This document shows positions 30,310-47,600 of a stretch of DNA of 64,000 nucleotides, piece after piece. This stretch comes from Pollutimonas nitritireducens (GTDB taxonomy: Bacteria > Pseudomonadota > Gammaproteobacteria > Burkholderiales > Burkholderiaceae_B), in assembly GCF_002849615.1 (NCBI RefSeq), contig NZ_PDNV01000006.1:186001-250000 (forward strand), given 5' to 3'. The notes under the pieces were generated by a model. It had not been told where the DNA came from, made no database searches, and worked only from the letters and a program-made list of their open reading frames with translations. The number at the start of each line of letters is the position of its first letter. The stretch's first letter is position 1. A program made the position numbers and the translations under genes.

Positions 30310-31149
30310 CTACAGGTGGGCGGAATGATGCCGCAGGTGATCCTCGATGAAGGTGGCAATGAAGAAGTAGCTATGGTCGTAACCTGGCTGCATGCGCAGG
30401 TTCAATCGGACATTCGCCTCGTTGCAGGCGGCTGTCAGCAGTTCGGGCTTCAGTTGCTCCTGGAGAAACTGGTCGGCCGTACCCTGGTCGACCAGCAACT
30501 CAGGACCAGCCCACCCCTGCTTCTGGATCAACAACGTGGCATCGTAATCCGCCCACGAAGCACGATCGCTGCCAAGGTACCCGGTCAGCGCCTTCTCACC
30601 CCACGGACACCGTGTAGGCGATACGATGGGTGAAAAGGCAGAGATGGTCTTGAACTGGTCTGGATTTTTCAGACCGATTGTCAGTGCGCCGTGCCCGCCC
30701 ATGGAATGTCCGAAGATACCCGCACGCGTGGCATCGACTGCAAATTCGTCCGCAATAAGGTCGAAAAATTCCTTGGTGATATACGAATACATGCGATAGC
30801 CTTTGGACCACGGGGCTTCTGTCGCGTCGACATAGAAGCCGGCTCCGACACCAAAGTCGTAGCTTTCGGACTCTCCGGGGTAATTCAGCCCGCGCGGACT
30901 CGTGTCGGGCGTCACGATCGCAATACCGAGCTCAGCGGCCACGCGTTGCGCGCCGGCCTTGACGATGAAATTTTCTTCGGTGCAAGTAAGGCCCGACAAC
31001 CAGAACACGACAGGCACAGGGGCTTTTTCTGCTGCTGGAGGCAGGTACACGCCAAAGCGCATGGTGCAGCTGGTCTCGGTGGATTCATGGCTGTACACAC
31101 CCTGCGTTCCACCAAAGCTTTTGTTTTGCGTTAGGGTTTTCATGGTCAT
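30310..31149 (-). CDS. fghA: S-formylglutathione hydrolase
   Basis: About 279 residues from ATG 31149 (GGAACG upstream), start MTMKTLTQNKSFGGTQ. It is an alpha/beta hydrolase of the esterase D family that hydrolyses S-formylglutathione to formate and glutathione. The nucleophile elbow GIFGHSMGGHGALTIG holds the catalytic Ser, and the catalytic Asp/His region appears late in the protein (DQGTADQFL, GYDHSYFFI). It follows adhI by 84 bp, with a hairpin in the gap. It is the last step of GSH-dependent formaldehyde oxidation and converges on the cbb operon. Confidence 0.95.
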   Translation of the reverse strand: MTMKTLTQNKSFGGTQGVYSHESTETSCTMRFGVYLPPAAEKAPVPVVFWLSGLTCTEENFIVKAGAQRVAAELGIAIVTPDTSPRGLNYPGESESYDFGVGAGFYVDATEAPWSKGYRMYSYITKEFFDLIADEFAVDATRAGIFGHSMGGHGALTIGLKNPDQFKTISAFSPIVSPTRCPWGEKALTGYLGSDRASWADYDATLLIQKQGWAGPELLVDQGTADQFLQEQLKPELLTAACNEANVRLNLRMQPGYDHSYFFIATFIEDHLRHHSAHL

Positions 31150-31184
31150 TTTTTCGTTCCGTTTTTGTGGCCAATAAGAAAATA

Positions 31185-31216
31185 GCCCATATGACGCGGC
31201 AACGCGGCATATGGGC
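31185..31216 (-). terminator. Intergenic hairpin / possible attenuator between adhI and fghA
   Basis: GCCCATATG and CATATGGGC form a perfect 9-bp stem around a 14-nt loop. On the minus strand it is followed by the T-rich TATTTTCTTATT. It lies between two genes of one operon, so it may reduce read-through or stabilise the upstream message rather than end transcription fully. Confidence 0.5.
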
Positions 31217-31233
31217 CCCATGGAGATGTCAGG

Positions 31234-32343
31234 TCAGAAGGTGACGACGGATCGAATGGACGTACCGTCTTTCATCAACTGGAAAGCATCGTTGATCTTG
31301 TCGATCGGCATAACGTGCGTAATGAGATCATCGATATTGATCTTTCCCTCCATGTACCAGTCAACGATCTTGGGCACATCCGTGCGACCACGAGCACCGC
31401 CAAAGGCCGACCCTTGCCACACGCGGCCGGTCACCAATTGGAATGGCCGCGTTGCGATCTCCTGTCCGGCTCCAGCGACGCCAATAATCGTGCTTTTGCC
31501 CCAGCCTTTATGGGCGCACTCAAGGGCCTGCCGCATGAGCTTGACGTTGCCGATGCATTCGAATGTATGGTCGGCGCCGCCTTTTGTGAGTCCGACCAGA
31601 TACTGAACGAGATCCCCTTCCACTTCTTTCGAGTTCACGAAATGGGTAAGGCCGAACTTGCGGGCAAGCGCTTCGCGGGCCGGATTAATGTCGACCCCTA
31701 CGATCATGTCGGCGCCCGCGATGCGCGCACCCTGGATCACATTCAAGCCGATGCCGCCGAGACCGAAAACAATGACATTGTCGCCCGGCTGGACCTTCGC
31801 CGTATTGATGACAGCCCCAATGCCCGTGGTAACACCGCAGCCGATATAGCAAACTTTTTCAAATGGCGCATCTTCGCGGATTTTAGCAAGCGCGATCTCG
31901 GGTACGACCGTATAGTTGGAGAAGGTCGATGTACCCATGTAATGGAGCACCTCCTTGCCTCCCATCTTGAAACGACTGGTACCGTCCGGCATCACGCCGC
32001 GCCCCTGCGTTTCACGTATGGCCTGGCACAGATTGGTCTTGCGCGATAGGCAGTAGGAGCATGTCCGGCATTCGGGCGTATACAAGGGGATCACGTGGTC
32101 GCCCGGTTTCAGCGTAGTAACTCCGGCGCCTACCTCTACGACCACGCCGGCTCCTTCGTGACCCAGTATGGCTGGAAACAACCCTTCCGGATCATCGCCC
32201 GAAAGCGTGAACAAATCGGTGTGGCATACCCCCGACGCCTTGATCTCGACGAGGACTTCGCCGGCACGCGGTCCCTCAAGCTGTACGGTTTCGATAGTAA
32301 GCGGAGCGCCGGCCTTGGTGGCTACTGCTGCACGTACGTCCAT
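31234..32343 (-). CDS. adhI: S-(hydroxymethyl)glutathione dehydrogenase (class III alcohol dehydrogenase)
   Basis: A 369-residue zinc alcohol dehydrogenase from ATG 32343, after AAAGGA. It oxidises S-hydroxymethylglutathione to S-formylglutathione with NAD+. The catalytic zinc site is in [13 protein letters not shown] and [12 protein letters not shown]. The structural zinc Cys cluster is [15 protein letters not shown]. The nucleotide fold is [19 protein letters not shown]. The class III signature is strong throughout. It sits between gfa (71 bp upstream) and fghA. Together these three genes detoxify and oxidise formaldehyde produced by methanol dehydrogenase. An upstream extension of 20 codons has no family resemblance. 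Confidence 0.95.
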
Positions 32344-32414
32344 GTGTATAGATCCTTTTGTTGAATTGGCCTTGCGAAGCGGCATAGCCGCTCCTTCGAG
32401 CATAAAGCATGAGC

Positions 32415-32972
32415 TTATCTGGATTTCGCTACGTGAGTGGCGATTGCATCCATAAGCGGTGGCGAGAGGCAGTCGTAGGGGGGCAGACCGAGTTCGTTGA
32501 GACGAGCCCGGATGGCTCCCATCTGTTCAGGCGGCGTACCGGTTTCGATAATTGACGAGACAAAAGCCGCGAATTCCGGAGCAGCCCACCCAGTTTGGGG
32601 AGACCGCTCGGTATGGACGAAATCCAGCCCGTAGAATGGATGATTCTGGTTCTCGATGCGACCGAACATATGTACTCCGCACCCGGAACACGCATGGCGC
32701 TGGATCGTGGCCGTCGGATCGACGACCTTGAGCTTGTGGCCATTGGCTGTCACGCTGACGGCGTCTTTGGAAACCACTGCGACCTGGGAAAACAGGGCTC
32801 CAGCAGGTTTCCAGCATTTTGAACATCCGCATACGTGATTGTGCGCCGTCTGCGACTTGATGGTCACTTCCACTTTGTCCTCTGGGCAGTCGCACAGCAA
32901 GGTGCCACCTGAAAATCCGGGTGTTGCAGGCCGAATGCCATTATCAACAGCGGGATGGATGTTTATACTCAT
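32415..32972 (-). CDS. gfa: S-(hydroxymethyl)glutathione synthase (glutathione-dependent formaldehyde-activating)
   Basis: A 185-residue Gfa-family zinc protein that captures formaldehyde with glutathione. Cys motifs of the fold are present: [26 protein letters not shown] and [15 protein letters not shown], together building the two zinc sites. The full-length form (about 185-190 residues) matches the Paracoccus-type Gfa. It is the first gene of gfa-adhI-fghA. A sigma-54-type promoter lies about 94 bp upstream, suggesting it is induced with methanol dehydrogenase. Confidence 0.93.
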
Positions 32973-33064
32973 TAATGTCTCCTGATAGGCGTCTTGGACC
33001 GTACGGCTCGCTACTGGATTGAACCGTGGGTAAATGGCTGTTTTTTGCCATCCCTGGGTTACCT

Positions 33065-33081
33065 AGCAAAAACCGAGCCGG
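33065..33081 (-). promoter_or_regulatory. Candidate sigma-54 promoter for gfa-adhI-fghA
   Basis: Minus strand CCGGCTCGGTTTTTGCT has GG and GC exactly ten bases apart, with a perfect TTGC at -12. The -24 element is CGGCT instead of TGGCA (two mismatches). The distance from the -12 GC to the gfa ATG is about 94 bp, nearly the same as for xoxF (96 bp). Confidence 0.55.
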
Positions 33082-33160
33082 TTTGGAGACTTGGTGAAAA
33101 TATAAATGCAACCGCGGTTTCGGTATCGTTCTCGAAACGATTGCGCCGCCTCATGCTCAT

Positions 33161-34216
33161 TTATTGAACATGGGGCGGGATCTCAGGTTTCCCTTTTAGC
33201 TCACCATCGAGAATGCGTCGCTCCACCTCGAGATATTGGTGTTCCACATTTATATCATGCACATTGTCGTACAACGGCCAATGCTCATATTGCGGCAGCT
33301 GCGACGATTCAGCAACGCTTCCCAGACCGATTCCAGCCTGGAAGGTTTGCTCGACCACCTCTTGCAGTGCATTCAGGTAATCGACTAGGTTATCCAACTC
33401 CGCCACTGAAGAAATGGGTCCCTCACCAGGAACTATCCTGGAAGGCCTGCGTTTCTTGAAATCTTCGAGCGCCACTAGCCAGGCGTAAATGCGCGCATCT
33501 TTGGCATCAGGGATCCGGCCAATTGATGCGAGGCCTCCAGCAAACAGGACACCAGACTTGCGGTCGACCACGGCGATAGAACCGGGCGACGAACTATGTC
33601 CGTAATAGAGTATGTCCAGGTGACGCCCTGCAATGTCAATACTCATGGCGCCATCCACGGTCCGGGTAGGAACTACGACCCGTGTTCCCTCCATCTCCTC
33701 GGGTCCCAGGATATGATTGAGTTTCTGCAGGCATTTTTCGCAACGCTGGCTGATCAGCGCGGCCACATCCTCGTGTGCAAGAATCGGAACACCCTGTAGC
33801 GCCAGTGTGCCGTTTCCAAATACAAACGCAGGGTTCTGGTGCGTATTGATCGCCAGCATGATGGGTTTGGGAGTTAAACCTCGGACCGCGGCGAGAATGT
33901 CAGTCATATGACGCGCGCTAGTACCTGTGCCGATGAGGATAACGCCGTCCTCTCCGACGATAATGCCCTGATTGGCGACTACGCCTCGGTTTTGCGGTGT
34001 TGCCACGCTAATTTGCCCTAGTGCCGCATAGATGCCGGGCGCCACCTGCTGCAACGAAGTAACCCGCGACGTCTGCGCTTGTACTGACATACTGCAGGCA
34101 AGCACGCCCCCTATTGCGACAGCTTGCAACAATGGCATGACTATTGCTAAGAAAATAAGTAACGGTCCGTCTGTCCCGTAGCGCCGGGCCGCGAATGGGT
34201 CTGTCATGAGATACAT
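33161..34216 (-). CDS. Quinoprotein relay system metallo-hydrolase-fold protein 2 (degenerate metal site)
   Basis: A 351-residue exported protein of the metallo-beta-lactamase fold, SoxH-related, of the type that accompanies PQQ dehydrogenases. An N-terminal hydrophobic segment (about residues 19-47) should act as a signal or anchor. The position of the HxHxDH metal motif reads NTHQNPAF (residues 124-131), so only the first His remains. The usual Asp is Gly (AGGLAS) and the later His is Glu (VPGEGP). The sister protein at 36023 keeps all of these. It is probably a binding or structural protein rather than a hydrolase. Start could also be the Met at codon 4. It is divergent from 34234. Confidence 0.85.
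   Translation of the reverse strand: MYLMTDPFAARRYGTDGPLLIFLAIVMPLLQAVAIGGVLACSMSVQAQTSRVTSLQQVAPGIYAALGQISVATPQNRGVVANQGIIVGEDGVILIGTGTSARHMTDILAAVRGLTPKPIMLAINTHQNPAFVFGNGTLALQGVPILAHEDVAALISQRCEKCLQKLNHILGPEEMEGTRVVVPTRTVDGAMSIDIAGRHLDILYYGHSSSPGSIAVVDRKSGVLFAGGLASIGRIPDAKDARIYAWLVALEDFKKRRPSRIVPGEGPISSVAELDNLVDYLNALQEVVEQTFQAGIGLGSVAESSQLPQYEHWPLYDNVHDINVEHQYLEVERRILDGELKGKPEIPPHVQ
34132..34148 (+). promoter_or_regulatory. Candidate sigma-54 promoter for the 34234-35131 gene pair
   Basis: ATGGCATGACTATTGCT has TGGCA, then TTGC, with GG (34134-34135) and GC (34146-34147) ten bases apart. It lies inside the 5' part of the relay-2 gene on the opposite strand, 87 bp before the ATG at 34234. 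Confidence 0.65.
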
Positions 34217-34233
34217 CGCTTATAGGGAAAAAC

Positions 34234-34596
34234 ATGAAGCTTTTACCGTCTGCCATCTTGTCACTGCTTTTAGCAAGCGTTATGCCAGTTACCGCAAACG
34301 CCGCCGCGCACGTTAGCGATTTCCCCACTACCACGCGCGTGGAATACGTACTGGAATGCATGCAGGCACATCCGGGCAAAAATTATGAATCCTTCTATAA
34401 ATGTTCGTGCGCCATCGACGAAATCGCCAAGCAGGCTGCATTCAACGAATACGCCGAAATATCGACAGCATCCAAGTACCTGCGACTAGGGGGCGAGCGC
34501 GGAGCCGAGTTCCGTGACCCCGCGCAGGTAAAGGTCATGGCCAAGAAGTACAAAGACATCGAAACGAGGGCCGCTAATGCCTGTTTCCTTAAATAG
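34234..34596 (+). CDS. Small exported four-Cys protein of unknown function
   Basis: A 120-residue protein with signal peptide MKLLPSAILSLLLASVMPVT ending near ANAAA, and an AGGGAAA ribosome-binding site. The mature part is charged and helical, with four Cys (ECMQAHPG, YKCSCAIDE, NACFLK). The Cys are compatible with periplasmic disulfides or a metal or heme-related site, although no CxxCH is present. I do not recognise the family. It overlaps the next gene by 20 bp, lies among methanol-dehydrogenase accessory genes, and has a sigma-54 type promoter, so a role in periplasmic quinoprotein function is inferred. Confidence 0.8.
   Translation: MKLLPSAILSLLLASVMPVTANAAAHVSDFPTTTRVEYVLECMQAHPGKNYESFYKCSCAIDEIAKQAAFNEYAEISTASKYLRLGGERGAEFRDPAQVKVMAKKYKDIETRAANACFLK
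34272..34288 (-). promoter_or_regulatory. Candidate sigma-54 promoter for relay protein 2
   Basis: Minus strand CTGGCATAACGCTTGCT contains TGGCA and TTGC with GG (34286-34285) and GC (34274-34273) ten bases apart. It lies within the coding start of the divergent 34234 gene, about 57 bp upstream of the relay-2 ATG. With the promoter at 34132 the two transcripts would overlap at their 5' ends by about 100 nt. Confidence 0.62.
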
Positions 34597-35131
34597 CGGG
34601 CTCGCAACGCTTTTGCTTAAGGGCGGCCAGTGTCTCGCCGCCCTTGTCATCCTGGCCCCGTTTGCGGTTTGCGCTGCCGAGAGCGCGGTACAGTCTATTG
34701 CAATAATGGATTTCGAGCTGATCGACAACACGGGTGAAACCGACAAAGATGCCGAACAGAAGCTGCGCCTGGCCAAGATCACCCAGCAATTACGCCACGA
34801 CATTGCCGACAAGGAACTGTACGCGGTGATTGACAACGCGCCGGCTGCAACTCTCATCAAAGATCTACAAAAGCGTTTCAACTTGTATAGCTGCAACGGC
34901 TGCGATGTGGAAATCGGGCGGGCGCTGCACACCAACCGTGTCCTGACCGGATGGGTGCAGAAAGTCAGCAACCTGATTCTGAACATCAACTTCCAGGTCC
35001 GCGACGTGGAAGGCGGCAATATCGTCCTGAACAAATCGGTGGATATCCGGGGCAATACCGATCAAACGTGGAGTCGCGGCATTCGCTATATGGTCCGTAG
35101 CATGGTCGAGAAAAACCAGGCCGGACTTTAG
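34577..35131 (+). CDS. DUF2380-type exported protein of the methanol dehydrogenase cluster
   Basis: A 184-residue protein with an N-terminal hydrophobic signal (residues about 11-34, ending VCAAES). The mature part starts VQSIAIMDFELIDNTGET, which resembles DUF2380-like proteins with a CsgG/TolB-type N-terminal strand. A Cys pair occurs in YSCNGCDVEIGRALHTNRVL. The function is unknown. Such proteins recur beside PQQ-dependent alcohol dehydrogenase genes. Its start lies within the previous gene (20-bp overlap), so the two are translationally coupled. Confidence 0.75.
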   Translation: MPVSLNSGLATLLLKGGQCLAALVILAPFAVCAAESAVQSIAIMDFELIDNTGETDKDAEQKLRLAKITQQLRHDIADKELYAVIDNAPAATLIKDLQKRFNLYSCNGCDVEIGRALHTNRVLTGWVQKVSNLILNINFQVRDVEGGNIVLNKSVDIRGNTDQTWSRGIRYMVRSMVEKNQAGL

Positions 35132-35144
35132 CGGCCTTAAGTCC

Positions 35145-35966
35145 TTATTCAGGAGTGACCTTTAATGACGTGTCGAAGACAAGGTCGTTGGAGTCCTGGG
35201 CTCGTGCCGTTAACACGCCTTCCGCTTGCGGCGTGAAGTAGAACCTGAAATTGGGATTCTCACTGATCCCGAAATCCACGTCAGCGGTCATGACCGGCTC
35301 GCCGGCGTAAGCCACTTCCAGCCGGCGCACGTAATGGGGCGGTTCGTATAGCCGGGTCGCCTGATCCATGACCATGCCCGACGCGTTCGGGTGGCGGATC
35401 ATGAGCTGGGCCATCACGGGCTGGTTCAACCGCGGATTGTCCTGGGTCATCAGTTTCATCTTGCCCAGATTATCATCGCCACCAGGTGCCCTGTTGGCAG
35501 GAGCCGAACAGCCGCCTGAGGCTTTTACATATGCCTTGGCCATGGTCAGTTTGCCGTCACTGGTTTCGACGATTGCGCGCACATAGGTGTACTGCTCGAC
35601 CCTCACCCTCGTTTCAATATCCGCAAGACCGCTTGCGGGCGTCAGGTGAAATACCGCAGCGACCGGTGCGGGGTTGTCGTCGACAATAAGGTGTATGGTC
35701 TTGATATAGCCTTGCTGCGTCTGGGGTATGAGGGCTTTGATCGATACCGGCACAACAGCCGCATCTTGAGCTCGTTTTGGGACCGTCAGGGCGATCAGTT
35801 GATCACCATCATTGCTGATGGCTCGTTCCTGGAACAAGCCCGCACGCAGTTTCGGCCACATTGGGCTGTCGGGCGGCAAGTCCGGTTCGGCCGCAAACGA
35901 CAGCATGGGAACCAGCACGATAATAGCGGCGATGCGAAACCGGAACTTGCGGTACATGCTATGCAT
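35145..35966 (-). CDS. Quinoprotein dehydrogenase-associated SoxYZ-like carrier
   Basis: About 273 residues from ATG 35966, after an AGGAG site. A signal peptide (RFRIAAIIVLVPMLSFAAE) is followed by a SoxY-like half with the Cys-bearing loop VKASGGCSAPANRAPGG, and then a SoxZ-like half (LNQPVMAQLMIRHPNASGM). The single Cys resembles the substrate-carrying Cys of SoxY, but it is internal because the two domains are fused. It lies 56 bp downstream of relay protein 1 and is probably co-transcribed. The family is tied to PQQ dehydrogenases, but its cargo is unknown. Confidence 0.87.
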   Translation of the reverse strand: MHSMYRKFRFRIAAIIVLVPMLSFAAEPDLPPDSPMWPKLRAGLFQERAISNDGDQLIALTVPKRAQDAAVVPVSIKALIPQTQQGYIKTIHLIVDDNPAPVAAVFHLTPASGLADIETRVRVEQYTYVRAIVETSDGKLTMAKAYVKASGGCSAPANRAPGGDDNLGKMKLMTQDNPRLNQPVMAQLMIRHPNASGMVMDQATRLYEPPHYVRRLEVAYAGEPVMTADVDFGISENPNFRFYFTPQAEGVLTARAQDSNDLVFDTSLKVTPE

Positions 35967-36022
35967 AAGAGTCTCCTGACACTTTATCGTTGTACTGCGC
36001 TTATCCAAACCTATCAAGTACA

Positions 36023-37024
36023 TCAATCTTCCCATTCCAGTTCCGTGAATGCCGCTGTCACGTTTTGTCGATGAGAGCCGTCAAATAGCTGCCATTGCGA
36101 CGGATTCAAGGCGCCGATCTCGGACATGGCCTGCTGTATGGAACGCTTGGCCTTTAGCGCGGCGCGCACGTCTGCCTGCAATTGTTGTAGATACTGCTGC
36201 TGCGGCTTCATTACCGCGGGCCAATCCGTGCTGACGGAACCATGGCCTGGCACGACAAGCCTGGCCGGGATCCCGGCCAGGCTTTCCATGGTGGACAGCC
36301 AGCCCGAAAGCTTGCCATCAAGCGATGGAATACGCTCGCGGAACACCAGGTCGCCTGTCCAGAGCGTGGCCGTCGTTTCGTCCAGGACCGTTAAATCATT
36401 GTCCGTATGAGAAGTGGGCCAGGCCTGGATGGTAAGCGTGCGTTCACCCAGGTCAAGCTGGTGCACTTCCTTTACCGGCACGTTGGGGGGAACGAGAATA
36501 CTTTGCCGCGCCAGGTCCGGACCGATCGTGCGTTCCAGGTACGCGGCATAGTAGCCGTCCCGCGAACGCATCGACGCGGCAAGATTGTGGTGGCCGACAA
36601 ATTCGGCTTGGTCGGCGGTAAACGCCGCATTTCCATATACATGATCGGGATGAACATGGGTATTGATCACATAACAAACCGGCAATGAGGTTTGTCTGCT
36701 TATTGCGGCGCGCAAGGCTTTACCCTGCGCAAAACTTCCGCCTGTGTCAATGACCGCCACGCATTCGCCACCTACGATGAAGCCCACATTGGCGATTGCT
36801 CCATAATTGCCGGGCATGGCGTCCTGATGCACACCTTGATGCACAAAAACGCCAGCAGCCACCTCTTGTACGGGCAAGGGATCGTCGGCACCCAATACCA
36901 CGGACGGGATCGCGCAGCACAACAGCGGCGCACATAGCCACTTTGCAACGCCGGTGAACGCCTGCGCCGCCCATGGCGCAATAGGCGATGACGCGTGCAC
37001 GCCGCACTGGTTCATTCTTTCCAT
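36023..37024 (-). CDS. Quinoprotein relay system zinc metallohydrolase 1
   Basis: A 333-residue exported metallo-beta-lactamase-fold protein, SoxH-related. A hydrophobic N-terminal stretch (about residues 25-45) precedes the domain. The metal site is complete: NTHVHPDHVYGN (His123, His125, Asp127, His128), SHTDNDL, TGDLVF with the bridging Asp, and VPGHGS. It is divergent from xoxF, with the SoxYZ-like gene behind it. A start at codon 4 (37015) has a better GGAAAG ribosome-binding site. The role proposed for the family is supporting PQQ-dehydrogenase electron relay; this is not biochemically settled. Confidence 0.88.
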   Translation of the reverse strand: MERMNQCGVHASSPIAPWAAQAFTGVAKWLCAPLLCCAIPSVVLGADDPLPVQEVAAGVFVHQGVHQDAMPGNYGAIANVGFIVGGECVAVIDTGGSFAQGKALRAAISRQTSLPVCYVINTHVHPDHVYGNAAFTADQAEFVGHHNLAASMRSRDGYYAAYLERTIGPDLARQSILVPPNVPVKEVHQLDLGERTLTIQAWPTSHTDNDLTVLDETTATLWTGDLVFRERIPSLDGKLSGWLSTMESLAGIPARLVVPGHGSVSTDWPAVMKPQQQYLQQLQADVRAALKAKRSIQQAMSEIGALNPSQWQLFDGSHRQNVTAAFTELEWED

Positions 37025-37059
37025 TTCATCCCTGCTTCATCGTCGGATAGTGTGGCCAC

Positions 37060-37076
37060 CGCAATAGCCGTGCCAA
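37060..37076 (-). promoter_or_regulatory. Sigma-54 promoter for relay protein 1 / SoxYZ-like operon
   Basis: Minus strand TTGGCACGGCTATTGCG matches the sigma-54 consensus TTGGCACG-N4-TTGC at every fixed position, with GG and GC ten bases apart. The expected transcription start is about 12 bp on, giving a leader of roughly 25-35 nt to the ATG at 37024 or 37015. This is the strongest of five such sites in the cluster. Confidence 0.75.
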
Positions 37077-37125
37077 TACAACCGATGCTTACCATACGAA
37101 CAGAGACGTGCCAGACGCTGAGAAA

Positions 37126-37147
37126 TGTGTTGACTAAACGGAACACA
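37126..37147. promoter_or_regulatory. Candidate enhancer (upstream activating) site between the divergent sigma-54 promoters
   Basis: TGTGTT-N10-AACACA is a perfect inverted repeat. It lies 50 bp from the relay-1 -24 element and about 118 bp from the xoxF -24 element, typical for an NtrC-family activator site serving both. A second repeat (GAACA-N15-TGTTC) overlaps it at 37141-37165. The activator is probably the one encoded at 42770. The link is inferred. Confidence 0.5.
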
Positions 37148-37263
37148 AGATCAGCCGGATTGTTCAGGTGGCAGGACATTCTTGAAACAGATGTCGTCCA
37201 GACAGACGTCAACGCTCCAGCGACTGTCGTCAGTTCCCGCCTGACATTGCTCGATCATCAAAA

Positions 37264-37280
37264 TTGGCACGATAAGTGCT
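37264..37280 (+). promoter_or_regulatory. Sigma-54 promoter for the xoxF operon
   Basis: TTGGCACGATAAGTGCT has a perfect TTGGCACG -24 element, and GC ten bases after GG (37266-37267 and 37278-37279). The -12 box is GTGC rather than TTGC. It lies 96 bp upstream of the xoxF ATG. The rest of the 37025-37374 intergenic region holds the divergent relay-1 promoter and the inverted repeats; I see no gene in it. Confidence 0.7.
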
Positions 37281-37374
37281 TGATTGATCATGCAACAAGT
37301 CGTCGGGGTGCTATAGCGCTGAACTGAGTTTCATCTCTTGGATGCCTCGCCGTATAACCACACCGGAGGAAGAC

Positions 37375-39213
37375 ATGTCATTTAAGGTAACTCTGAAAAC
37401 CGCGTTATGCATCGCCGGGGTCATTATGGCAACCGGCCACGCACAAGCAGACCCTATGCTCGACAAAGCCGCAGCCGACCCCGCCAATTGGGCTATGCAA
37501 GCCGGAAATATCCAGAATCATCGCTATAGCGAACTAAAGCAGATCACTAGCGATAACGTCAAAGATCTTCAGGTGGCCTGGACATTCTCGACGGGCGTGT
37601 TGCGAGGGCATGAAGGCGGTCCTTTGGTCATTGGCGACACGATGTATGTGCACAGCCCATTCCCCAACAAAGTCTTTGCCATCAATCTCGAAGACCACTC
37701 CATGATCTGGAAGTACGAACCTAAGCAGGACCCATCCGTGATCGCCGTCATGTGTTGCGACACGGTCAATCGCGGACTGGCTTATGGCGATGGCAAGATC
37801 ATCCTGGGGCAGGCGGACACAACGCTCGTCGCGCTCGATGCAAAAACAGGCGAGGAAGTCTGGAAAATCGTTAACGGCAATCCCAAAATCGGCGAGACCA
37901 ACACCAATGCCCCTCATATCTTCAAAGATAAAGTCATCACCGGCATCAGCGGCGGCGAGTTCGGGGTGCGTGGCCATTTAACCGCTTACGACCTAAAAAC
38001 CGGCAAAGAGGTCTGGAAGGGTTATTCGGTTGGACCTGATGACGAAATGCTGTTTGACCCAGAGAAAACAATGACCTGGACGGACGGCAAAATGGCGCCA
38101 GTCGGCAAGGACTCCTCGCTCAAGACTTGGGAAGGCGACCAATGGAAGATAGGCGGCGGCACGACATGGGGCTGGTTCAGCTACGATCCGGAAACCAACC
38201 TCGTCTACTACGGCTCGGCAAATCCCAGCACCTGGAATCCCAAACAGCGTCCCGGCGACAATAAATGGACGATGTCCATCATTGCGCGCGATCTTGATAC
38301 CGGTGTAGCAAAATGGGTCTATCAAATGACTCCTCATGACGAATGGGATTACGACGGTGTCAACGAAATGATACTGGCCGATATCAAAGTCAAGGGCCAG
38401 GATCGCAAGGCGCTGGTGCACCTGGATCGCAACGGCTTCGGCTACACACTGGACCGCGTAACCGGCGAACTGCTGGTGGCCGAGAAATTCGACCCGACCG
38501 TCAACTGGGCGACCCATGTCGACATGAAAACCGGCCGGCCACAAGTCGATCCCAAGTACAGCACCTTGCAAAATGGTGAAGACGTCAATACCAAAGGCAT
38601 CTGCCCTGCCGCTCTTGGCACCAAAGACCAGCAGCCTGCCGCCTTTTCGCCCAAAACCGGCTTGTTCTATGTACCGACCAACCACGTGTGTATGGATTAT
38701 GAGCCGTACCAGGTCGAATACATCGCCGGGCAGCCTTATGTCGGCGCAACCCTGTCCATGTATCCAACTCCCGGAAGCCATGGCGGTATGGGCAACTTCA
38801 TTGCCTGGGATGCTGGTACTGGCAAGATCGTCTGGTCAAAGCCCGAGAAATTCTCGGTCTGGAGCGGCGCCCTGGCTACCGCAGGCGATGTCAACTTCTA
38901 CGGAACACTTGAAGGATTCATCAAAGCGGTCGACAACGATGGCAAGGAACTATGGAAGTTCAAAACCCCATCCGGCGTGATTGGCAATGTAACCACATGG
39001 GAACGCAAGGGCAAGCAGTACATCGGCGTACTGTCGGGAATTGGCGGTTGGGCAGGTATTGGCCTTGCCGCTGCTCTTGAAAAATCCACAGACGGCCTGG
39101 GCGCTGTCGGGGGCTACAAAGAGCTGGCACGCTACACCGAACTCGGTGGTGTGCTGATGGTCTTTGCACTGCCGGACAGCGTCATCAAAAAGACCACGGT
39201 CGCAGCCAAGTAA
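37375..39213 (+). CDS. xoxF: Lanthanide-type PQQ-dependent methanol dehydrogenase XoxF
   Basis: A 612-residue periplasmic quinoprotein from ATG 37375, after GGAGGA. The signal peptide ends AHAQA. The eight-blade propeller contains the vicinal Cys pair [10 protein letters not shown] (Cys127-Cys128) that sits on PQQ. The catalytic region is [14 protein letters not shown], with catalytic Asp325 and, two residues on, Asp327. This DxD is the mark of lanthanide-dependent XoxF; the calcium enzyme MxaF has Ala there. No mxaI gene is present. It oxidises methanol, perhaps directly to formate for some members, and passes electrons to cytochrome c. It heads an operon with xoxG and xoxJ. Confidence 0.96.
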
Positions 39214-39278
39214 GCGCAGCATCGCAGCCGGAGTCCACCCCGACCCGGCTGCTTTCGATGCCCGTTCATAATGCTGGA

Positions 39279-39310
39279 AATTGGCGTCGCGGCTCGCCGC
39301 CACGCCAATT
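39279..39310 (+). terminator. Hairpin between xoxF and xoxG
   Basis: AATTGGCGT and ACGCCAATT make a perfect 9-bp stem with a GC-rich 14-nt loop, followed by CTTTATT. It is a weak terminator or, more likely, a 3'-stabilising element that lets xoxF mRNA exceed that of downstream genes. Confidence 0.6.
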
Positions 39311-39331
39311 CTTTATTAAGGATATGTCGGT

Positions 39332-39799
39332 ATGTTGTCACGCTTCACCCTAATTAACGCAAGCCTGCTGATCGCTGTTGCTTGCTCAATGTCAGCTCAC
39401 GCCATCGCAAATAACGACGGTGCCAAGGCCAAGCCAGCCACCGAGTCTCCGCCCGCGCAAAGCGAGGCGTCCGCAGACAAAAAGCTGTACACCGTCGTCG
39501 ATAAGAGTCACGTCGACGGGAACACACTCGAGGGTTGGAAAACCTGGCGTGCGCTTGCCTGCGCCCGATGCCATGGTGCGCAACAAGAAGGAATGGTAGG
39601 ACCTTCCTTGATAGAAAGCCTCAAGACAATGAGCAAATCAGATTTCGAGCATACGATAAAAGAGGGGCGAATCGAAAAAGGCATGCCACCATTCGGCGGC
39701 GTACCTCGCGTCGTGGAGAATATCGACAATCTTTATGCGTACCTGAAGGGACGCTCAGAAGGCGATATAGCACCCGGCCGACTTGAAGCAATCGAGTAA
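39332..39799 (+). CDS. xoxG: Cytochrome c of the methanol dehydrogenase (XoxG-type)
   Basis: A 155-residue mono-heme c-type cytochrome with signal peptide ending MSAHAIA. The heme-binding motif ACARCHGAQQEG has Cys77, Cys80 and His81. A probable Met axial ligand lies in KGMPPFGGVPR. A Pro/Ala/Lys linker (about residues 28-50) precedes the heme domain. Placement 118 bp after xoxF makes it the likely physiological electron acceptor. The symbol is by position and type; cytochromes of this role are sequence-diverse. Confidence 0.88.
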   Translation: MLSRFTLINASLLIAVACSMSAHAIANNDGAKAKPATESPPAQSEASADKKLYTVVDKSHVDGNTLEGWKTWRALACARCHGAQQEGMVGPSLIESLKTMSKSDFEHTIKEGRIEKGMPPFGGVPRVVENIDNLYAYLKGRSEGDIAPGRLEAIE

Positions 39800-39853
39800 C
39801 CGCCACCGGCGCAGCCCGGACGTGTGGCATCGGCCATGTAAAGGAAGTCATCC

Positions 39854-40753
39854 ATGTTTTCAAGAAAATCATATGCAACCGCTATCCTGCGCAGCGCGGG
39901 CGCCATGGTAGCCATATTCGTCGCCTGTTCCGCGAATGCGCAGCAAAAAGCGCCCGTTGATACTCAAGAAAAGGTACTACGGGTCTGTCAAGATCCGAAG
40001 AACCTGCCTATGTCGGACGAACAGGAACGCGGATTCGAGAACAAGATAGCCGCCCTGTTCGCCAAGAAGCTGGGCTGGAAGCTCGAACATACCTGGTCGC
40101 CACAGCGCGTTGGATTCATTCGCAACACCTTGCGAGCAAAGATTCCTGATACCGATACCTACAAATGTGACCTGGTGACCAGCGTATCACCCGGCTTCGA
40201 AATGGGCATTGCTACCAAGCCGTATTTCAGTTCAACCTATGCCATGGCTTACGTAAAAGGAAAGGGACTGGATTCCATTCGCACACCGCAAGACATTCAC
40301 AAACTAGACAAAGCAACGCTCGAAAGGCTCAAGATCGGTATCTTTACTGGTACGCCGGCGGCCGACTGGTTGGTCAAGAACAAACTTACCAAGCAAATGG
40401 TGTCGTATCAGTTACAGACCGGTGATCGCGATCAATATCCAGGCCAGATCATCGAGAACGACCTCGCCTCCGGTAAGCTGGATATAGCAATTGCCTGGGG
40501 TCCTATCACGGGCTACTTCGCCAAGAACGCGCACGGCGTACCGATCGAAGTTGTTCCTTTTCCCGCCGAGGCTGATGGGATCAGATACGGCTTCAGCATC
40601 GCTATGGGAGTGCGTCATGGAGAGCAGGAATTCCGTGATCAGATCAATACGCTCATTGATACGAACCGACCGGCAATCGATGCGATTCTTCAAGAGTACA
40701 GCGTACCGATAGTGTCGCCGGCACCGTCGTCAAGCAAAGCTGCTTCTTCCTGA
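39854..40753 (+). CDS. xoxJ: XoxJ-type periplasmic binding protein
   Basis: A 299-residue protein with signal peptide (AMVAIFVACSANAQQ) and a type-2 periplasmic solute-binding fold: KVLRVCQDPKNLPMSDEQERGF at the mature N-terminus, and QLQTGDRDQYPGQIIENDLASG in the second lobe. It belongs to the quinoprotein-dehydrogenase-associated binding proteins (MxaJ/XoxJ). No ABC permease is nearby. XoxJ is thought to help activate or mature XoxF. It is preceded by xoxG (54 bp) and followed by a hairpin and an unknown gene. Confidence 0.9.
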   Translation: MFSRKSYATAILRSAGAMVAIFVACSANAQQKAPVDTQEKVLRVCQDPKNLPMSDEQERGFENKIAALFAKKLGWKLEHTWSPQRVGFIRNTLRAKIPDTDTYKCDLVTSVSPGFEMGIATKPYFSSTYAMAYVKGKGLDSIRTPQDIHKLDKATLERLKIGIFTGTPAADWLVKNKLTKQMVSYQLQTGDRDQYPGQIIENDLASGKLDIAIAWGPITGYFAKNAHGVPIEVVPFPAEADGIRYGFSIAMGVRHGEQEFRDQINTLIDTNRPAIDAILQEYSVPIVSPAPSSSKAASS

Positions 40754-40763
40754 TGTGCAACCA

Positions 40764-40792
40764 TTGCTCTGCGTGCAACGCACGCAGAGCAA
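40764..40792 (+). repeat. Strong inverted repeat just before the 40801 gene
   Basis: A 13-bp perfect stem (TTGCTCTGCGTGC / GCACGCAGAGCAA) with a three-base AAC loop, ending next to the AAGGAG ribosome-binding site of the next gene. There is no T-tract. It may stabilise upstream mRNA or hinder ribosome access to the next gene. It starts about 10 bp after the xoxJ stop. Confidence 0.75.
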
Positions 40793-40800
40793 GGAGCGTA

Positions 40801-41502
40801 ATGCCAATGATGCGCCTGAAACTAAAAGATCGCAGCGGCACGATACTGCTTGCGCTGGCAGCTGCGAGCGCTGGCATGAACATGTCGACCGTGGCAGCAC
40901 AAGAAATCACTATTGCAGAACGCACGCTATTTCTGGACAAGCACTTCAGTGTTACCGGGAAGCAGAAACTCACTTATCTATTCCATCAGGAAACAAGTGA
41001 TGTCCCGGCATTCAACGACACGGCGACGGTAGAGGTGCACGAACTTGGCCCAGACGGAACGGCCTCGGTCACTACCCAATTCCTGTCAGACGAACATGCC
41101 TTTCCCATCCCGCCTCTTGAACGCGCAACGGGCAATCCCGTAATCCTCGGCTTTCTGGAAAGCGATATCGCAAAGATGAAGCGCTTGACGGGCGGTTCGA
41201 CCAACTATTTTCGTAAGCACATCCGGATGGCACTCGCGGCGGCGGATGTGCGTATCCGGCAAACCCATATTGATTACAACAGCAATACTGTCCAGGCGCA
41301 GGAAATCACCATAGTCCCCTATTCAGGAGAATCTCAAAATAACCGTTTGGGCCGGTACACCGACAAGGCATATGTTTTCGTCACAAGTGCCGACATACCG
41401 GGCGTGGTGTACTGCATTTATACGAAGATGAGCGGAACACCTGATCAGACTGTCGACTCCAGCATAACGATTGCCGGTGGCGATCCGAAGCAATGTAAAT
41501 AA
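40801..41502 (+). CDS. Exported protein of unknown function in the xox operon
   Basis: About 233 residues from ATG 40801, placed after AAGGAG. A signal peptide (residues about 12-37, ending STVAAQE) precedes a mature part rich in beta-strand-like segments (KLTYLFHQETSDVPAFND, SVTTQFLSDEHAFPIPP). Two Cys occur near the end (VVYCIYTK, PKQCK). I do not recognise a family. Expression with xoxFGJ suggests a periplasmic accessory role. An upstream in-frame Met at 40753 would sit inside the hairpin region and lacks a ribosome-binding site. Confidence 0.75.
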   Translation: MPMMRLKLKDRSGTILLALAAASAGMNMSTVAAQEITIAERTLFLDKHFSVTGKQKLTYLFHQETSDVPAFNDTATVEVHELGPDGTASVTTQFLSDEHAFPIPPLERATGNPVILGFLESDIAKMKRLTGGSTNYFRKHIRMALAAADVRIRQTHIDYNSNTVQAQEITIVPYSGESQNNRLGRYTDKAYVFVTSADIPGVVYCIYTKMSGTPDQTVDSSITIAGGDPKQCK

Positions 41503-41562
41503 GAACATCAAGCAATCGTTTTATGGCAACTGTAGTATCGGACCGCAAATCGGGACTGCATC

Positions 41563-42597
41563 GTGAAAATCTTCATTTTTGAACATACCCACGCAGTGGC
41601 GCCCAACGCAATGGCTTCGGTCGGTAATGGCGCCTCGTCCTCATCAGGGTTTCGTGGCGATATCATGCTGCGTTCCCTGTTGGCCGACATCGCAAGTATT
41701 GACGCCGTCGACGTGCTGACGCTGCAGGACACGGCTCCACGAATACCTCGACTTTCAAGTCGTAGCACCCTCCAAAGCGTGCAATCCGAAGAAGTCATTG
41801 ATGCCATAGACGACTGCATTGAGCAAGCCGATGCGGTCTGGCCGCTTGCGCCCGAGTCGAATGGCCTGCTGGAAGCCATTTCAAAAAAAACAATCCAGCA
41901 CAACAAGATACTACTTGGCAGCACTGGTGCTGCGGTGCGGGCGACCGCGAGTAAATACAATAACGCACTGGCACTACAAGCCAACGATATTCCAGTGGTT
42001 CCTACCTATAAAGCCCAGATGCCGCTACCGCCAGATTCGCAGGGGTGGGTCGTCAAGCCTGACGACGGGGCTGGATGCTCCGACACCCACATTTTTTTGC
42101 ACTCGAAGGCGGCCGTCGAGTGGGTAGCTGCGCGCGAGCAAGGCGGCTATGTAATGCAGCCCTATATAACCGGCCGCCCCTGCAATTTGTCGTTGCTATG
42201 CCGAGACGGAGAAGTGTTGCTTATGGCATGCAACGATCAGCGCGTGGCCGTGTCCGACAATCAATTTCACTACATGGGGAGCATCGTAAACAGCTTTGAG
42301 GACGCCAATGGGGAGCTCAAGCGCCTGGCTCTTCGCGTTCTCGCTACGATTCCCGGATTGTGGGGCTACGTCGGCATAGATTTCATCGTAACAGAGCACG
42401 GTCCGGTAGTGCTCGAAGTCAATCCGCGCATGACTGTTTCACATGTCGGTCTGCATGCCTCGGTCGGGGTTAATCCCATCCAGATAATGCTCGATAGCAT
42501 AAATGAAAATAAACGCAGCGTTCCGATCCGTAGCAGAACCAGGAAGATCAGTGTCGATATCGGCGCGCGGCAAAGCAACCGCCATGTCGTTGAATAG
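41563..42597 (+). CDS. ATP-grasp ligase-like enzyme
   Basis: A 344-residue cytoplasmic protein with GTG start at 41563. The ATP-grasp fold is visible: GWVVKPDDGAGCSDTHIFL (nucleotide loop), YVMQPYITGRPCNLSLLCRD, and GYVGIDFIVTEHGPVVLEVNPR with the metal-binding Glu/Asn. It resembles the tyramine-glutamate ligase (MfnD-like) group found in methylotrophs, but no methanofuran or H4MPT-pathway gene is present in this window. It more likely makes a small amide or peptide product. The substrate is unknown. It follows 40801 by 60 bp in the xox operon. Confidence 0.75.
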   Translation: MKIFIFEHTHAVAPNAMASVGNGASSSSGFRGDIMLRSLLADIASIDAVDVLTLQDTAPRIPRLSSRSTLQSVQSEEVIDAIDDCIEQADAVWPLAPESNGLLEAISKKTIQHNKILLGSTGAAVRATASKYNNALALQANDIPVVPTYKAQMPLPPDSQGWVVKPDDGAGCSDTHIFLHSKAAVEWVAAREQGGYVMQPYITGRPCNLSLLCRDGEVLLMACNDQRVAVSDNQFHYMGSIVNSFEDANGELKRLALRVLATIPGLWGYVGIDFIVTEHGPVVLEVNPRMTVSHVGLHASVGVNPIQIMLDSINENKRSVPIRSRTRKISVDIGARQSNRHVVE

Positions 42598-42769
42598 CTT
42601 GAGAAATTTACGAAACGCCATGGATCTTCACCTGTAACACAGATAGCGCTCTAAGCTGTGGCTTTCGGCAGCGAAATCGTATACCGTATTGCTTTCAAGC
42701 TCATCATCCATACCGGGGCTGCATTTTATAGAACTCCGGACGGTTCGATCAAAGAGTAAGGAGACAAAA

Positions 42770-44737
42770 ATGGTCAGCGTGCACAGTCATGGCGCCCGCG
42801 TACGCGAGGTAGTAGAGTCGTCGCCAGCCCCCTATTCGCGCGTACCGCCTCATATTACCGAGTCCTGGATCCGGTGTATCAGCGAGTATCAGCTCGATCC
42901 CACGATACCTCATGAACTCTACGTGGTCGAAAGCCACGAACTACTAGAGCGGCAAGAGCAGGTCGCGCCTGTCATGCGGGCAGCCAAAAGCGAAATGACT
43001 GTTTTGTTCCAGCAAATCGCCAAATCCGATTACGCCATCATGCTGACGGATACCGAAGGGGTCCTGTTGAACTTCTTTGGCGACCCGGGATTTACCCATG
43101 CAGCATCAAAGTCTGGTCTTATGCCTGGCGCCGTCTGGTCCGAGCGCTTCCAGGGAACCAACGGCATGGGCACATGCCTGGCGGAACAACGTCCGATGAT
43201 GATCCACCAGGACGATCATTTCCTGTTCCGCAATACCGGCCTCACCTGTGCGGCCGCACCCATTTTCGACTGGCGCGGCCAGATTCTGGCTGTACTCGAT
43301 GCTTCCGGAGAAACCCACAGAGTTCCAAGCCATGTACTGGATCTGGTCAACATGACAGTCCAGGAGATCGAAAATAAGGTATTCGTCAACGAATTCTCCG
43401 GCCGTCCACTATTTGTATTCCATAGTCGTCCAGAGTTCGTGGGCACCTTGAACAAAGGTATTATTGCGCTGGATTCCGACAGCTGTGTGCTTGCCGCCAG
43501 TCGTAATTGCCTGGCACAGCTCGGCGTCACTTCGAACGAAATCATCGGCCAGCCCCTGGACGCGCTCTTTAACGTATCATTCAAGTCGCTGCTGCGCGAG
43601 AGTCAAAAGCACGGGCCTGCCCCATTCATTGTGTTTGATGCTCACCATGGTCGCCGCTTCTTCGCAACCGCTACGTCCGGACAATCCGATGGCAAGTCGC
43701 CGTTGCAAGTCTTCGCCACACAAGCGTCGGCACCGACACTCAGCAACGTGCCGGCATCCGACAGGCTGACACCGCTTTACGAGCTCCAACGGGGCCATGA
43801 TGCCCGTATGGAACACAACATCCAGACCGCCATGCGCGTATTTGACCGAGATGTCGCCATTTTGCTCTGCGGCGAAACGGGAACTGGCAAAGAACTCTTC
43901 GCGAAGGCCATACATCTGTCCAGCAATCGGGCCGATCAGCCCTACGTGGCAATCAATTGCGCCTCCATCCCGGAACAGTTGATTGAAAGCGAGTTATTCG
44001 GTTACAAGCCGGGTGCCTTTACCGGTGCCAATAAAGAAGGCCAGATAGGCAAAATATGCCAGGCCAATGGTGGCACATTATTTCTCGACGAAATCGGCGA
44101 TATGCCACTGGCACTACAAACGCGTCTACTGCGCGTACTCGAAGAACGAGAGATCGCTCCATTAGGCGGAAAGACGCCGACCAAGCTGGATATACGCCTT
44201 ATCAGTGCAACGCACTGCGATTTGCCGGAAAAGATTGCGAACAACCTGTTTCGTGAAGACCTCTATTATCGTATTCAGGGCGTCACACTCACGCTTCCTC
44301 CCTTACGCGAACGCGCGGACCGCAAAGAATTGATTCAGTTCGTGCTTGAGCAGGAATCGCCAGACGATGGCATCGTCACCATAAGCGACGAGTTGATGGA
44401 TCTCCTGGAACGCCATCAATGGCCAGGCAATATCCGGCAACTGCGCAACGTCTTGCGCGTCATGATGGCATTGCGTGACGGAAATGTGCTGACTCGGGAC
44501 TGCCTACCGGCTGATTTCCTTACCGGGCCTAAGGAAAATTCGGCAGCTTCAGCGCCAATAACGTCCAGTTTGCTCAATCCATTGGAACTGGCCGAGCGTG
44601 AAGCGTTGATTCAGGAACTACGAATTTCACACTGGAATCTGAGCAAACTGGCGCGTCAACTTAAAGTAAGCCGCAACACGCTTTATAGAAAGCTTGAGCG
44701 CCTGGATATCAACGTTGCCTCACGCGAGGCCTGTTAG
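42770..44737 (+). CDS. Sigma-54-dependent transcriptional activator, AcoR-like
   Basis: 655 residues from ATG 42770, after AAGGAG. The N-terminal sensor is AcoR-type: VPPHITESWIRC, then a GAF-like domain (about residues 70-210) and a possible PAS segment (about 225-330). The central AAA+ domain has Walker A GETGTGKE (from residue 368) and the intact sigma-54 contact loop GAFTGAN (residues 415-421). The C-terminal Fis-type HTH is SKLARQLKVSRNTLYRKLER. AcoR-type sensors respond to small alcohols, aldehydes or ketones. It is the last gene of the xox block and the natural candidate to activate the five sigma-54 sites. Confidence 0.92.
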   Translation: MVSVHSHGARVREVVESSPAPYSRVPPHITESWIRCISEYQLDPTIPHELYVVESHELLERQEQVAPVMRAAKSEMTVLFQQIAKSDYAIMLTDTEGVLLNFFGDPGFTHAASKSGLMPGAVWSERFQGTNGMGTCLAEQRPMMIHQDDHFLFRNTGLTCAAAPIFDWRGQILAVLDASGETHRVPSHVLDLVNMTVQEIENKVFVNEFSGRPLFVFHSRPEFVGTLNKGIIALDSDSCVLAASRNCLAQLGVTSNEIIGQPLDALFNVSFKSLLRESQKHGPAPFIVFDAHHGRRFFATATSGQSDGKSPLQVFATQASAPTLSNVPASDRLTPLYELQRGHDARMEHNIQTAMRVFDRDVAILLCGETGTGKELFAKAIHLSSNRADQPYVAINCASIPEQLIESELFGYKPGAFTGANKEGQIGKICQANGGTLFLDEIGDMPLALQTRLLRVLEEREIAPLGGKTPTKLDIRLISATHCDLPEKIANNLFREDLYYRIQGVTLTLPPLRERADRKELIQFVLEQESPDDGIVTISDELMDLLERHQWPGNIRQLRNVLRVMMALRDGNVLTRDCLPADFLTGPKENSAASAPITSSLLNPLELAEREALIQELRISHWNLSKLARQLKVSRNTLYRKLERLDINVASREAC

Positions 44738-47329: not shown

Positions 47330-47480
47330 GAGGGATGTTTTCCTTATATTTTTTGGACTTGTGTCAGCTTTGGCACACGTGCTCCATATATGCAACAAGC
47401 TGCTACGTTGACTAACTTCCAACATCCTGATGCTAAAAGCGCCTTTTTTAACGATAACCCTATTTGCGTGTCCGGGTTGC

Positions 47481-47508: not shown

Positions 47509-47600
47509 CAAATCGACTGCAGCGATTAGAGCAATACAGCATTAGTCCAAGCGGTCGCCGATCTTTAGAAAAGTGACGCAAACTTTCGCCAGGAGATGCC

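What the first reader, a model, noticed from the sequence alone, without database searches (positions are those of the whole stretch)
33065..44737. A sigma-54 regulon covering lanthanide-type methanol oxidation and formaldehyde oxidation
Five GG-N10-GC elements precede every divergent transcription unit of the cluster: xoxF (37264), relay 1/SoxYZ (37060), relay 2 (34272), the unknown/DUF2380 pair (34132) and gfa-adhI-fghA (33065). Three have TGGCA and TTGC both exact. Nine fixed bases would be met by chance about once per 130 kb over both strands (my arithmetic, equal base use). An AcoR-like sigma-54 activator with intact GAFTGA is encoded in the same cluster. Known xoxF control in model methylotrophs uses two-component systems and lanthanide signals; AcoR-type sigma-54 control of a full XoxF-to-formate module is, as far as I know, little or not described.
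Basis: partly seen in the sequence, partly recalled or inferred. Interest (0 to 1): 0.88.

Follow-up and report, generated by a model that had tools for sequence, protein, structure and literature searches.

The report
Sigma-54 control of methanol oxidation genes
A bacterial gene cluster for burning methanol with a rare-earth enzyme appears to be switched on by a specialised promoter system (sigma-54 plus its own activator protein), and relatives of that activator sit beside either the rare-earth or the calcium version of the enzyme, which suggests it senses the fuel rather than the metal.

Summary
Five GG-N10-GC (-24/-12) elements lie 35-94 bp upstream of five annotated starts, well above chance. 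In a diverged genus mate 43 of 45 core bases are kept, against 103 of 235 neighbouring bases. Two elements overlap coding sequence and the gfa one is weak here. A likely activator site (two palindromes) lies between the divergent xoxF and MBL/SoxYZ promoters. The cluster's activator is a GAF-PAS-AAA+-Fis protein. Its clade (support 98/95) has a methanol dehydrogenase gene within about 23 kb in 13 of 13 members, with an element before it in 11.

The activator thus probably reads methanol or formaldehyde, not lanthanides. There are no transcript data; activator control of the gfa, MBL2b and unknown-gene promoters is inferred. I found no held paper describing such control of xoxF or mxaF.

The parts
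30310..31221 (-). S-formylglutathione hydrolase gene (fghA), third gene of the gfa unit
   Evidence: Esterase PF00756 2.5e-61; adjacent and co-directional
31234..32403 (-). GSH-dependent formaldehyde dehydrogenase gene (adhI)
   Evidence: ADH_N and ADH_zinc_N; 95.8% and 94.6% in the two genus mates
32415..32972 (-). S-(hydroxymethyl)glutathione synthase gene (gfa)
   Evidence: TIGR02820 equivalog over cut-off
33065..33080 (-). sigma-54 -24/-12 element of gfa-adhI-fghA (CGGCT...TTGC, weak here; TGGCG...TTGC in G028)
33161..34216 (-). second quinoprotein-relay-like metallohydrolase (MBL2b); probable true start near 34138
   Evidence: TIGR04559 189 bits, below its cut-off 280
34133..34148 (+). 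sigma-54 element of the unknown gene/DUF3280 pair; overlaps the probable MBL2b start codon
   Evidence: score 7/7; kept in G028
34234..34596 (+). unknown 120-aa 4-Cys protein, probably secreted (by eye), common neighbour of xoxF
   Evidence: no Pfam or NCBIfam match; similar gene in 20 of 29 class-level xoxF stretches
34272..34287 (-). sigma-54 element of MBL2b; lies inside the first codons of the unknown gene
   Evidence: score 7/7; kept in G028
34577..35131 (+). DUF3280 (PF11684, described by Pfam as DUF2380) protein gene
   Evidence: 4.4e-44
35145..36035 (-). SoxYZ-like fused carrier of the quinoprotein relay
   Evidence: TIGR04557 over cut-off
36023..37024 (-). quinoprotein relay zinc metallohydrolase 2 (MBL2a)
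   Evidence: TIGR04559 over cut-off
37060..37075 (-). sigma-54 element of the MBL2a-SoxYZ unit (TGGCACGGCTATTGC)
   Evidence: core kept in G028 while spacer and flanks changed
37128..37145 (.). candidate activator site 2 (TGTTGACTAAACGGAACA)
   Evidence: kept in G028 as TGTCCATTAAACGGAACA
37161..37178 (.). candidate activator site 1, palindrome TGTTCAGGTGGCAGGACA, 86 bp from the xoxF element and 85 bp from the MBL2a element
   Evidence: one of two exact places in the 4.3 Mb genome, the other inside an ABC ATPase gene
37265..37280 (+). sigma-54 element of xoxF (TGGCACGATAAGTGC)
37375..39213 (+). xoxF, lanthanide-type methanol dehydrogenase (ORF open from 37342)
   Evidence: 6oc5 XoxF 4.7e-290; [12 protein letters not shown] with the extra Asp
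39332..39799 (+). c-type cytochrome (xoxG-like)
   Evidence: TIGR03874 46.7 bits, below its cut-off 161.75
39854..40753 (+). xoxJ periplasmic binding protein
   Evidence: TIGR03871 over cut-off
42770..44737 (+). AcoR/DhaR-type sigma-54 activator (GAF-PAS-AAA+-Fis HTH, GAFTGA present)
   Evidence: PF01590, PF00158, PF02954; GAFTGA; model and fold matches

Best explanation
The five elements are real sigma-54 promoters, and xoxF, MBL2a-SoxYZ and gfa-adhI-fghA (probably also MBL2b and the unknown gene/DUF3280 pair) form a sigma-54 regulon. RNA polymerase with sigma-54 waits at the -24/-12 elements (inferred). The activator encoded at 42770-44737 binds the paired palindromes at 37128-37178, detects a product of methanol metabolism through its GAF-PAS half, and opens the xoxF and MBL2a promoters with ATP (inferred). 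Because its relatives are coupled to XoxF in some species and to Ca-dependent MxaFI in others, the signal is most likely methanol, formaldehyde or S-hydroxymethylglutathione and not the lanthanide. Shown: elements, conservation, an activator gene with all its domains, two rpoN genes, clade linkage, xoxF/mxaF alternation. Inferred: promoter activity, binding, ligand, and activator control of the three promoters without a visible site.
For: Element score and chance tests. Core kept 43/45 against 103/235 elsewhere (p 7e-12); for the three strictly intergenic elements 25/27 against 61/141 (p 9e-7). In seven related genomes 17 of 17 tested starts (6 gfa, 3 xoxF, 4 mxaF, 3 of the unknown gene, 1 mfnE-like gene) have an element of 6-7/7 within 250 bp, while only 31 such elements exist in 539 kb of strand (the mfnE-like gene was added after seeing it, the genomes are close kin, and G044 and G037 were not in this count). 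Clade of 13 activators, 13 of 13 with an MDH gene within about 23 kb. MxaF motif and MxaI in the same six genomes. 20.6 kb backbone at 92% identity with different MDH cassettes. Two rpoN genes in open frames of 511 and 492 aa. Paired palindromes kept in G028.
Against: No transcript or mutant data. No activator site found at the gfa, MBL2b or unknown-gene promoters of the window. With one mismatch allowed the palindrome is hardly enriched in the genome (62 places, 46 for the reversed control). Two clade members, G044 (mxaF) and Paraburkholderia L004 (xoxF), lack an element before the MDH gene, as does mxaF of G037. Among class-level xoxF genes without a long activator match nearby, 3 of 26 have an element. 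Conservation of two of the five elements is confounded by coding sequence. The activator of G188 is matched in two different reading frames, so that copy may be broken. L209, L179 and L141 entered the tree through a dehydrogenase-first search.
Confidence: 0.77

Rival explanations
1. The promoters are sigma-54-dependent, but the activator at 42770 controls only the xoxF/MBL2a pair; gfa, MBL2b and the unknown gene answer to another activator of the cell.
For: Sites seen only at the xoxF/MBL2a intergenic region; the genome has at least one more protein of this kind (C29:164262-166073, 36%).
Against: In the second genus gfa itself has a site-like palindrome TGTATCGTATTCTGAACA 109-111 bp upstream in 6 of 6 genomes, which are close kin, and the same activator clade sits with gfa-adhI there. 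Weak sites or looping from a distance are possible.
Confidence: 0.22
2. The activator senses lanthanide status (directly or through XoxF) and this is a rare-earth switch.
For: In the window the target is a lanthanide-type XoxF.
Against: Same clade linked to Ca-type mxaFI in G061, G133, G177, G095 and G044; no mxaI in the window's genome, so there is nothing to switch to. None of the domains matched is a membrane or periplasmic one; no membrane predictor was run.
Confidence: 0.08
3. The elements are chance or non-promoter conserved sequence.
For: GG-N10-GC is short; two lie in coding sequence; the gfa one is degenerate; a 2-mismatch scan of the window is not enriched; one further element of score 6 lies inside the gfa gene.
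Against: Shuffles, conservation and recurrence in a second genus; genome-wide 33 strong matches against 6 for the reversed pattern.
Confidence: 0.03

Closest known systems
AcoR/DhaR-type sigma-54 activators (acetoin and dihydroxyacetone operons; roles recalled)
   Same: GAF-PAS-AAA+-Fis layout; the N-terminal half matches solved DhaR (4lrx, E 1e-5)
   Different: Genes governed are methanol and formaldehyde oxidation; below the cut-off of all 25 NCBIfam families shown of 29 matched, DhaR included (282.8 of 551 bits)
MmoR-sigma-54 control of soluble methane monooxygenase
   Same: Sigma-54 and a dedicated activator drive a C1-oxidation operon (passages of PMC5874634, and PMC6778391)
   Different: First step of methane oxidation, not methanol dehydrogenase or formaldehyde oxidation
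Azospirillum brasilense exaA (PQQ alcohol dehydrogenase, sigma-54 with a LuxR-type regulator)
   Same: A PQQ alcohol dehydrogenase under sigma-54 (cited in PMC6115532, passage seen; original not held)
   Different: LuxR-type partner instead of an AAA+ GAF activator; not a methanol dehydrogenase
Known xox/mxa control: MxbDM, MxcQE, MxaY/MxaB, PedS2/PedR2
   Same: Govern the same or related enzymes (one section and passages of PMC11845868)
   Different: Two-component systems tied to the lanthanide switch; no sigma-54 element described in what I read
GAF-modulated sigma-54 regulator named in the Fig. 1 legend of PMC11845868
   Same: Same kind of protein named in a figure of methanol dehydrogenase clusters
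   Different: Only a legend abbreviation; no promoter elements, targets or function in the passages I read; which species carries it cannot be told from the legend

Membership tests
sigma-54 (RpoN) promoters | GG and GC ten bases apart within TGGCAC-N5-TTGC | tested here: met
   gfa element degenerate at the -24 box
sigma-54 (RpoN) promoters | transcription starts about 12 bp downstream, RpoN-dependent | not testable with these tools
   needs 5'-end mapping and rpoN mutants
sigma-54 (RpoN) promoters | sigma-54 encoded in the genome | tested here: met
   two rpoN genes, open frames of 511 and 492 aa without inner stops
bacterial enhancer-binding proteins | AAA+ domain with GAFTGA loop and Fis-type HTH | tested here: met
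   PF00158, PF02954; GAFTGA in translation; AAA+ fold matches to FleQ, LuxO, NtrX
bacterial enhancer-binding proteins | enhancer-like site about 80-150 bp upstream of the promoter (range recalled) | tested here: inconclusive
   candidate found for xoxF/MBL2a, not for the other three; binding untested
AcoR/DhaR-type activators | GAF then PAS sensor ahead of the AAA+ domain | tested here: met
   GAF PF01590; PAS_2 only 2.2e-4; model; DhaR N-terminus 4lrx
AcoR/DhaR-type activators | membership of the named DhaR equivalog family | tested here: not met
   282.8 bits against cut-off 551
XoxF methanol dehydrogenases | extra Asp for the lanthanide in DEWDxDG, closest to XoxF and not MxaF | tested here: met
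   (role of the Asp recalled)
XoxF methanol dehydrogenases | lanthanide-dependent activity | not testable with these tools
   needs enzyme assay

The most novel reading that the evidence does not exclude
A dedicated clade of GAF-PAS sigma-54 activators is a metal-blind master switch of methanol oxidation. It controls whichever methanol dehydrogenase the species holds, and lanthanide (xoxF) and calcium (mxaFI) cassettes have been exchanged under it while the sigma-54 wiring and the formaldehyde module stayed in place.
Probability: 0.5. Interest if true: 0.77.

Novelty: new variant of a known kind. Interest (0 to 1): 0.64.

Why it matters
The 2024 review that I read in part says that regulation of XoxF-type dehydrogenases still requires further studies, and treats it through the lanthanide switch. 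Here a substrate-type switch is predicted for an XoxF-only organism that also carries RuBisCO, with a named protein, named sites and sister species in which the same activator lineage faces MxaF. That makes the question 'does the cell measure the metal or the fuel?' directly testable, and gives a candidate methanol or formaldehyde sensor for biotechnology.

Tried and rejected
Rejected: chance. Rejected: 'every unit has an element'; the activator, pqqB, ATP-grasp, cytochrome c and three other starts have none of score 4 or more. The element-like matches at 46803 and 46973 lie inside the 46412-47668 peptidase gene, and the one at 32925 inside gfa, so I did not count them as promoters. The 48-52% 'xoxF-like' genes, first taken for XoxF, are MxaF. 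A genome-wide activator-site search gave only one exact place outside the cluster, in coding sequence. One search scanned only the forward strand of each locus, which is wrong for minus-strand matches, and is withdrawn; one search replaces it (6 of 29 loci with an element of 6 or more: 3 of 3 with a long activator match nearby, one of them (G398) cut at a contig edge, against 3 of 26 others). The position-weight scan was trained on the sites it then finds, so only its failure elsewhere is informative. The model of the activator (pTM 0.49) supports domain layout only. A Cys at position 136 in the GAF domain (13/13 in the clade, 27% of the others) is a lead for the sensor but was not pursued. 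Papers: ten searches, of which I saw listings; passages of nine papers and one section of PMC11845868. Papers 10.1007/s00253-014-5766-8 and PMC5472811 are not held.
Full report
What is there. The window (part of a 4.31 Mb genome, contig C35) holds, among other genes, a RuBisCO gene, then gfa-adhI-fghA on the minus strand, two quinoprotein-relay-type metallohydrolases, a SoxYZ-like fused carrier, an unknown 120-aa gene with DUF3280, xoxF, a c-type cytochrome, xoxJ, an ATP-grasp-like gene resembling MfnD and a sigma-54 activator. XoxF is closest to solved lanthanide enzymes (6oc5, 4.7e-290) and keeps [12 protein letters not shown]. MxaI was not found in this genome and only one match to XoxF at E <= 1e-180 was found, so this looks like an XoxF-only organism. 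Fae and Mch were not found, so formaldehyde probably goes through the glutathione route to formate and CO2, with CO2 fixed by RuBisCO (inference).

The elements. My score demands GG-N10-GC and counts seven further consensus letters; the consensus YTGGCACGrNNNTTGCW is also printed in PMC5874634 (passage). Scores are 5 (gfa), 7 (unknown gene), 7 (MBL2b), 6 (MBL2a) and 6 (xoxF). Outside 32900-37400 the window has 8 elements of 6 or more and none of 7 on 119 kb of strand. Inside it there are five of 6 or more: four of the named ones and one at 32925-32940 within the gfa gene; 0 of 300 dinucleotide shuffles of the region reach five, and 2 of 300 reach the observed seven elements of 5 or more. Genome-wide the strict pattern TGGCAYN5TTGCW has 33 matches against 6 for the reversed control; two of the 33 are in this cluster.

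Conservation. Genus mates G087 and G028 have all 16 query genes of the cluster in the same order. G028 is diverged enough to be informative: 43 of 45 core bases are the same, against 24 of 35 spacer and 79 of 200 flanking bases (Fisher p 7e-12). Because the unknown gene's -24 box overlaps the probable MBL2b start codon, and the MBL2b element lies in codons of the unknown gene, I repeated the test on the three intergenic elements: 25 of 27 against 61 of 141 (p 9e-7). Both core changes are in the gfa element, which scores higher in G028 (6 against 5).

The activator site. Between the divergent MBL2a and xoxF promoters lie two 18-bp sites of the form TGTYC-N8-GRACA (one letter off in the second), 33 bp apart, the inner one 86 bp from the xoxF element and 85 bp from the MBL2a element; both persist in G028. 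The exact palindrome TGTYCNGN4CNGRACA occurs at two places in the genome, the other inside an ABC transporter ATPase gene. With one mismatch it is hardly enriched (62 places against 46 in the control). No such site is seen at the other three promoters of the window, while the second genus (g40) shows one at xoxF (3 of 3) and a one-letter-off one at gfa (6 of 6).

The activator. It has GAF, PAS, AAA+ with GAFTGA and a Fis helix-turn-helix. The front half matches DhaR (4lrx) and the AAA+ domain matches FleQ, LuxO and NtrX. Two rpoN genes are present.

Relatives. I aligned 65 activators: the window's, and those of 64 of the 145 larger loci examined, which gave a match from residue 120 or before to residue 600 or beyond; rows over 760 aa were cut to their last 680. 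Most loci came from activator-first searches; L209, L179 and L141 came from dehydrogenase-first searches. The window protein falls in a clade of 13 (98/95 support). All 13 have a methanol dehydrogenase gene within about 23 kb; in L004 only its first 120 matched residues are held. Eleven of 13 have an element of 6 or more before it; G044 and Paraburkholderia L004 do not. Dyella L003 and G542 carry the same pairing, with an element before xoxF, but their activators lie in the neighbouring group of 28 rows, most of which have no methanol dehydrogenase in the locus. In seven g40 and own-genus genomes 17 of 17 starts tested have an element within 250 bp, out of 31 elements in 539 kb of strand. That count leaves out G044 and G037, where mxaF has none, and includes one mfnE-like gene noticed afterwards. 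In G188 the activator is matched in two reading frames; it is not in the tree.

XoxF or MxaF. The dehydrogenases of G095, G177, G133, G061, G044 and G037 carry PHDEWDYAGVN, the MxaF form (meaning of the motif recalled), and these six of 16 genomes tested have MxaI. In G037 only a short weak activator match at the edge of the stretch was seen. G071 (xoxF) and G095 (mxaF) are 92% identical over 20.6 kb, including activator, gfa and adhI; G188 (xoxF) and G095 are 89-90% identical over two stretches of 10 and 11 kb; in both pairs identity stops beside the dehydrogenase cassettes. An element TGGTAYGRATATTGCTT stands at the cassette edge in all six g40 genomes although the sequence on both sides no longer aligns between the xoxF and the mxaF group. 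In the xoxF species that edge element precedes an mfnE-like gene (37 of 300 bits, scanned in G071 only) and xoxF has its own element. The activator lineage therefore goes with the substrate, methanol, whichever metal the enzyme uses.

Class-wide control. One search gave 34 further xoxF matches in 27 of 368 other genomes; 29 of them became loci and were examined. Six of 29 have an element of 6 or more within 400 bp: G542, G617 and G398, which have a long activator match nearby (G398's is cut at a contig edge), and three of the other 26 (G600, G388, G508). G600, G400 and G513 have activator matches to the AAA+ half only. Several contigs are short, so 'no activator' means none in the stretch held. 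One search made this count on the wrong strand for minus-strand matches and is withdrawn.

What is known. In ten searches of the held library I saw, among the listings and the passages I opened, no paper on sigma-54 control of xoxF or mxaF; most subscription papers are not held. The nearest are a figure legend naming a GAF sigma-54 regulator among dehydrogenase clusters (PMC11845868, section 6 and passages), MmoR for soluble methane monooxygenase (PMC5874634 and PMC6778391, passages) and exaA of Azospirillum (cited in PMC6115532, passage). AcoR-like activators of other clades also sit beside other PQQ alcohol dehydrogenases, with an element of 6 or more in 6 of 11 cases (one had only 14 bp of upstream sequence). 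The design is thus a branch of a wider theme, hence 'new variant of a known kind'.

Verdict. The regulon reading is well supported for xoxF, MBL2a-SoxYZ and gfa, and plausible for the other two. The lanthanide emphasis should be dropped in favour of a methanol or formaldehyde signal.

Noticed in passing
34234-34596: Unknown 120-aa protein with four Cys and no Pfam or NCBIfam family has a similar gene in 20 of 29 class-level xoxF stretches: an undescribed xoxF companion.
   Followed up: partly
41563-42597: ATP-grasp-like protein resembling MfnD (79 of 400 bits), and an mfnE-like kinase in the g40 xoxF cassette (37 of 300 bits), although Fae and Mch were not found in the window's genome: a methanofuran-like cofactor without the H4MPT pathway?
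   Followed up: partly
40753-41502: 249-aa protein without NCBIfam family recurs beside xoxF in 12 of 29 class-level stretches.
   Followed up: no
L001 and L002: Two rpoN genes in the genome; which one serves the methanol promoters is open.
   Followed up: no
L012, L014, L015, L025, L052, L121: AcoR-like activators of other clades beside other PQQ alcohol dehydrogenases with an element of 6-7/7 upstream in 6 of 11 loci.
   Followed up: partly
G000:C11:477644-517019: Eight strict sigma-54 matches within 40 kb, an unusually dense stretch elsewhere in the genome.
   Followed up: no
33161-34216: Second, diverged copy of the relay metallohydrolase (189 bits, below the family cut-off 280) with its own sigma-54 element.
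   Followed up: no
20829-24344: Ku and LigD end-joining genes next to the RuBisCO region.
   Followed up: no
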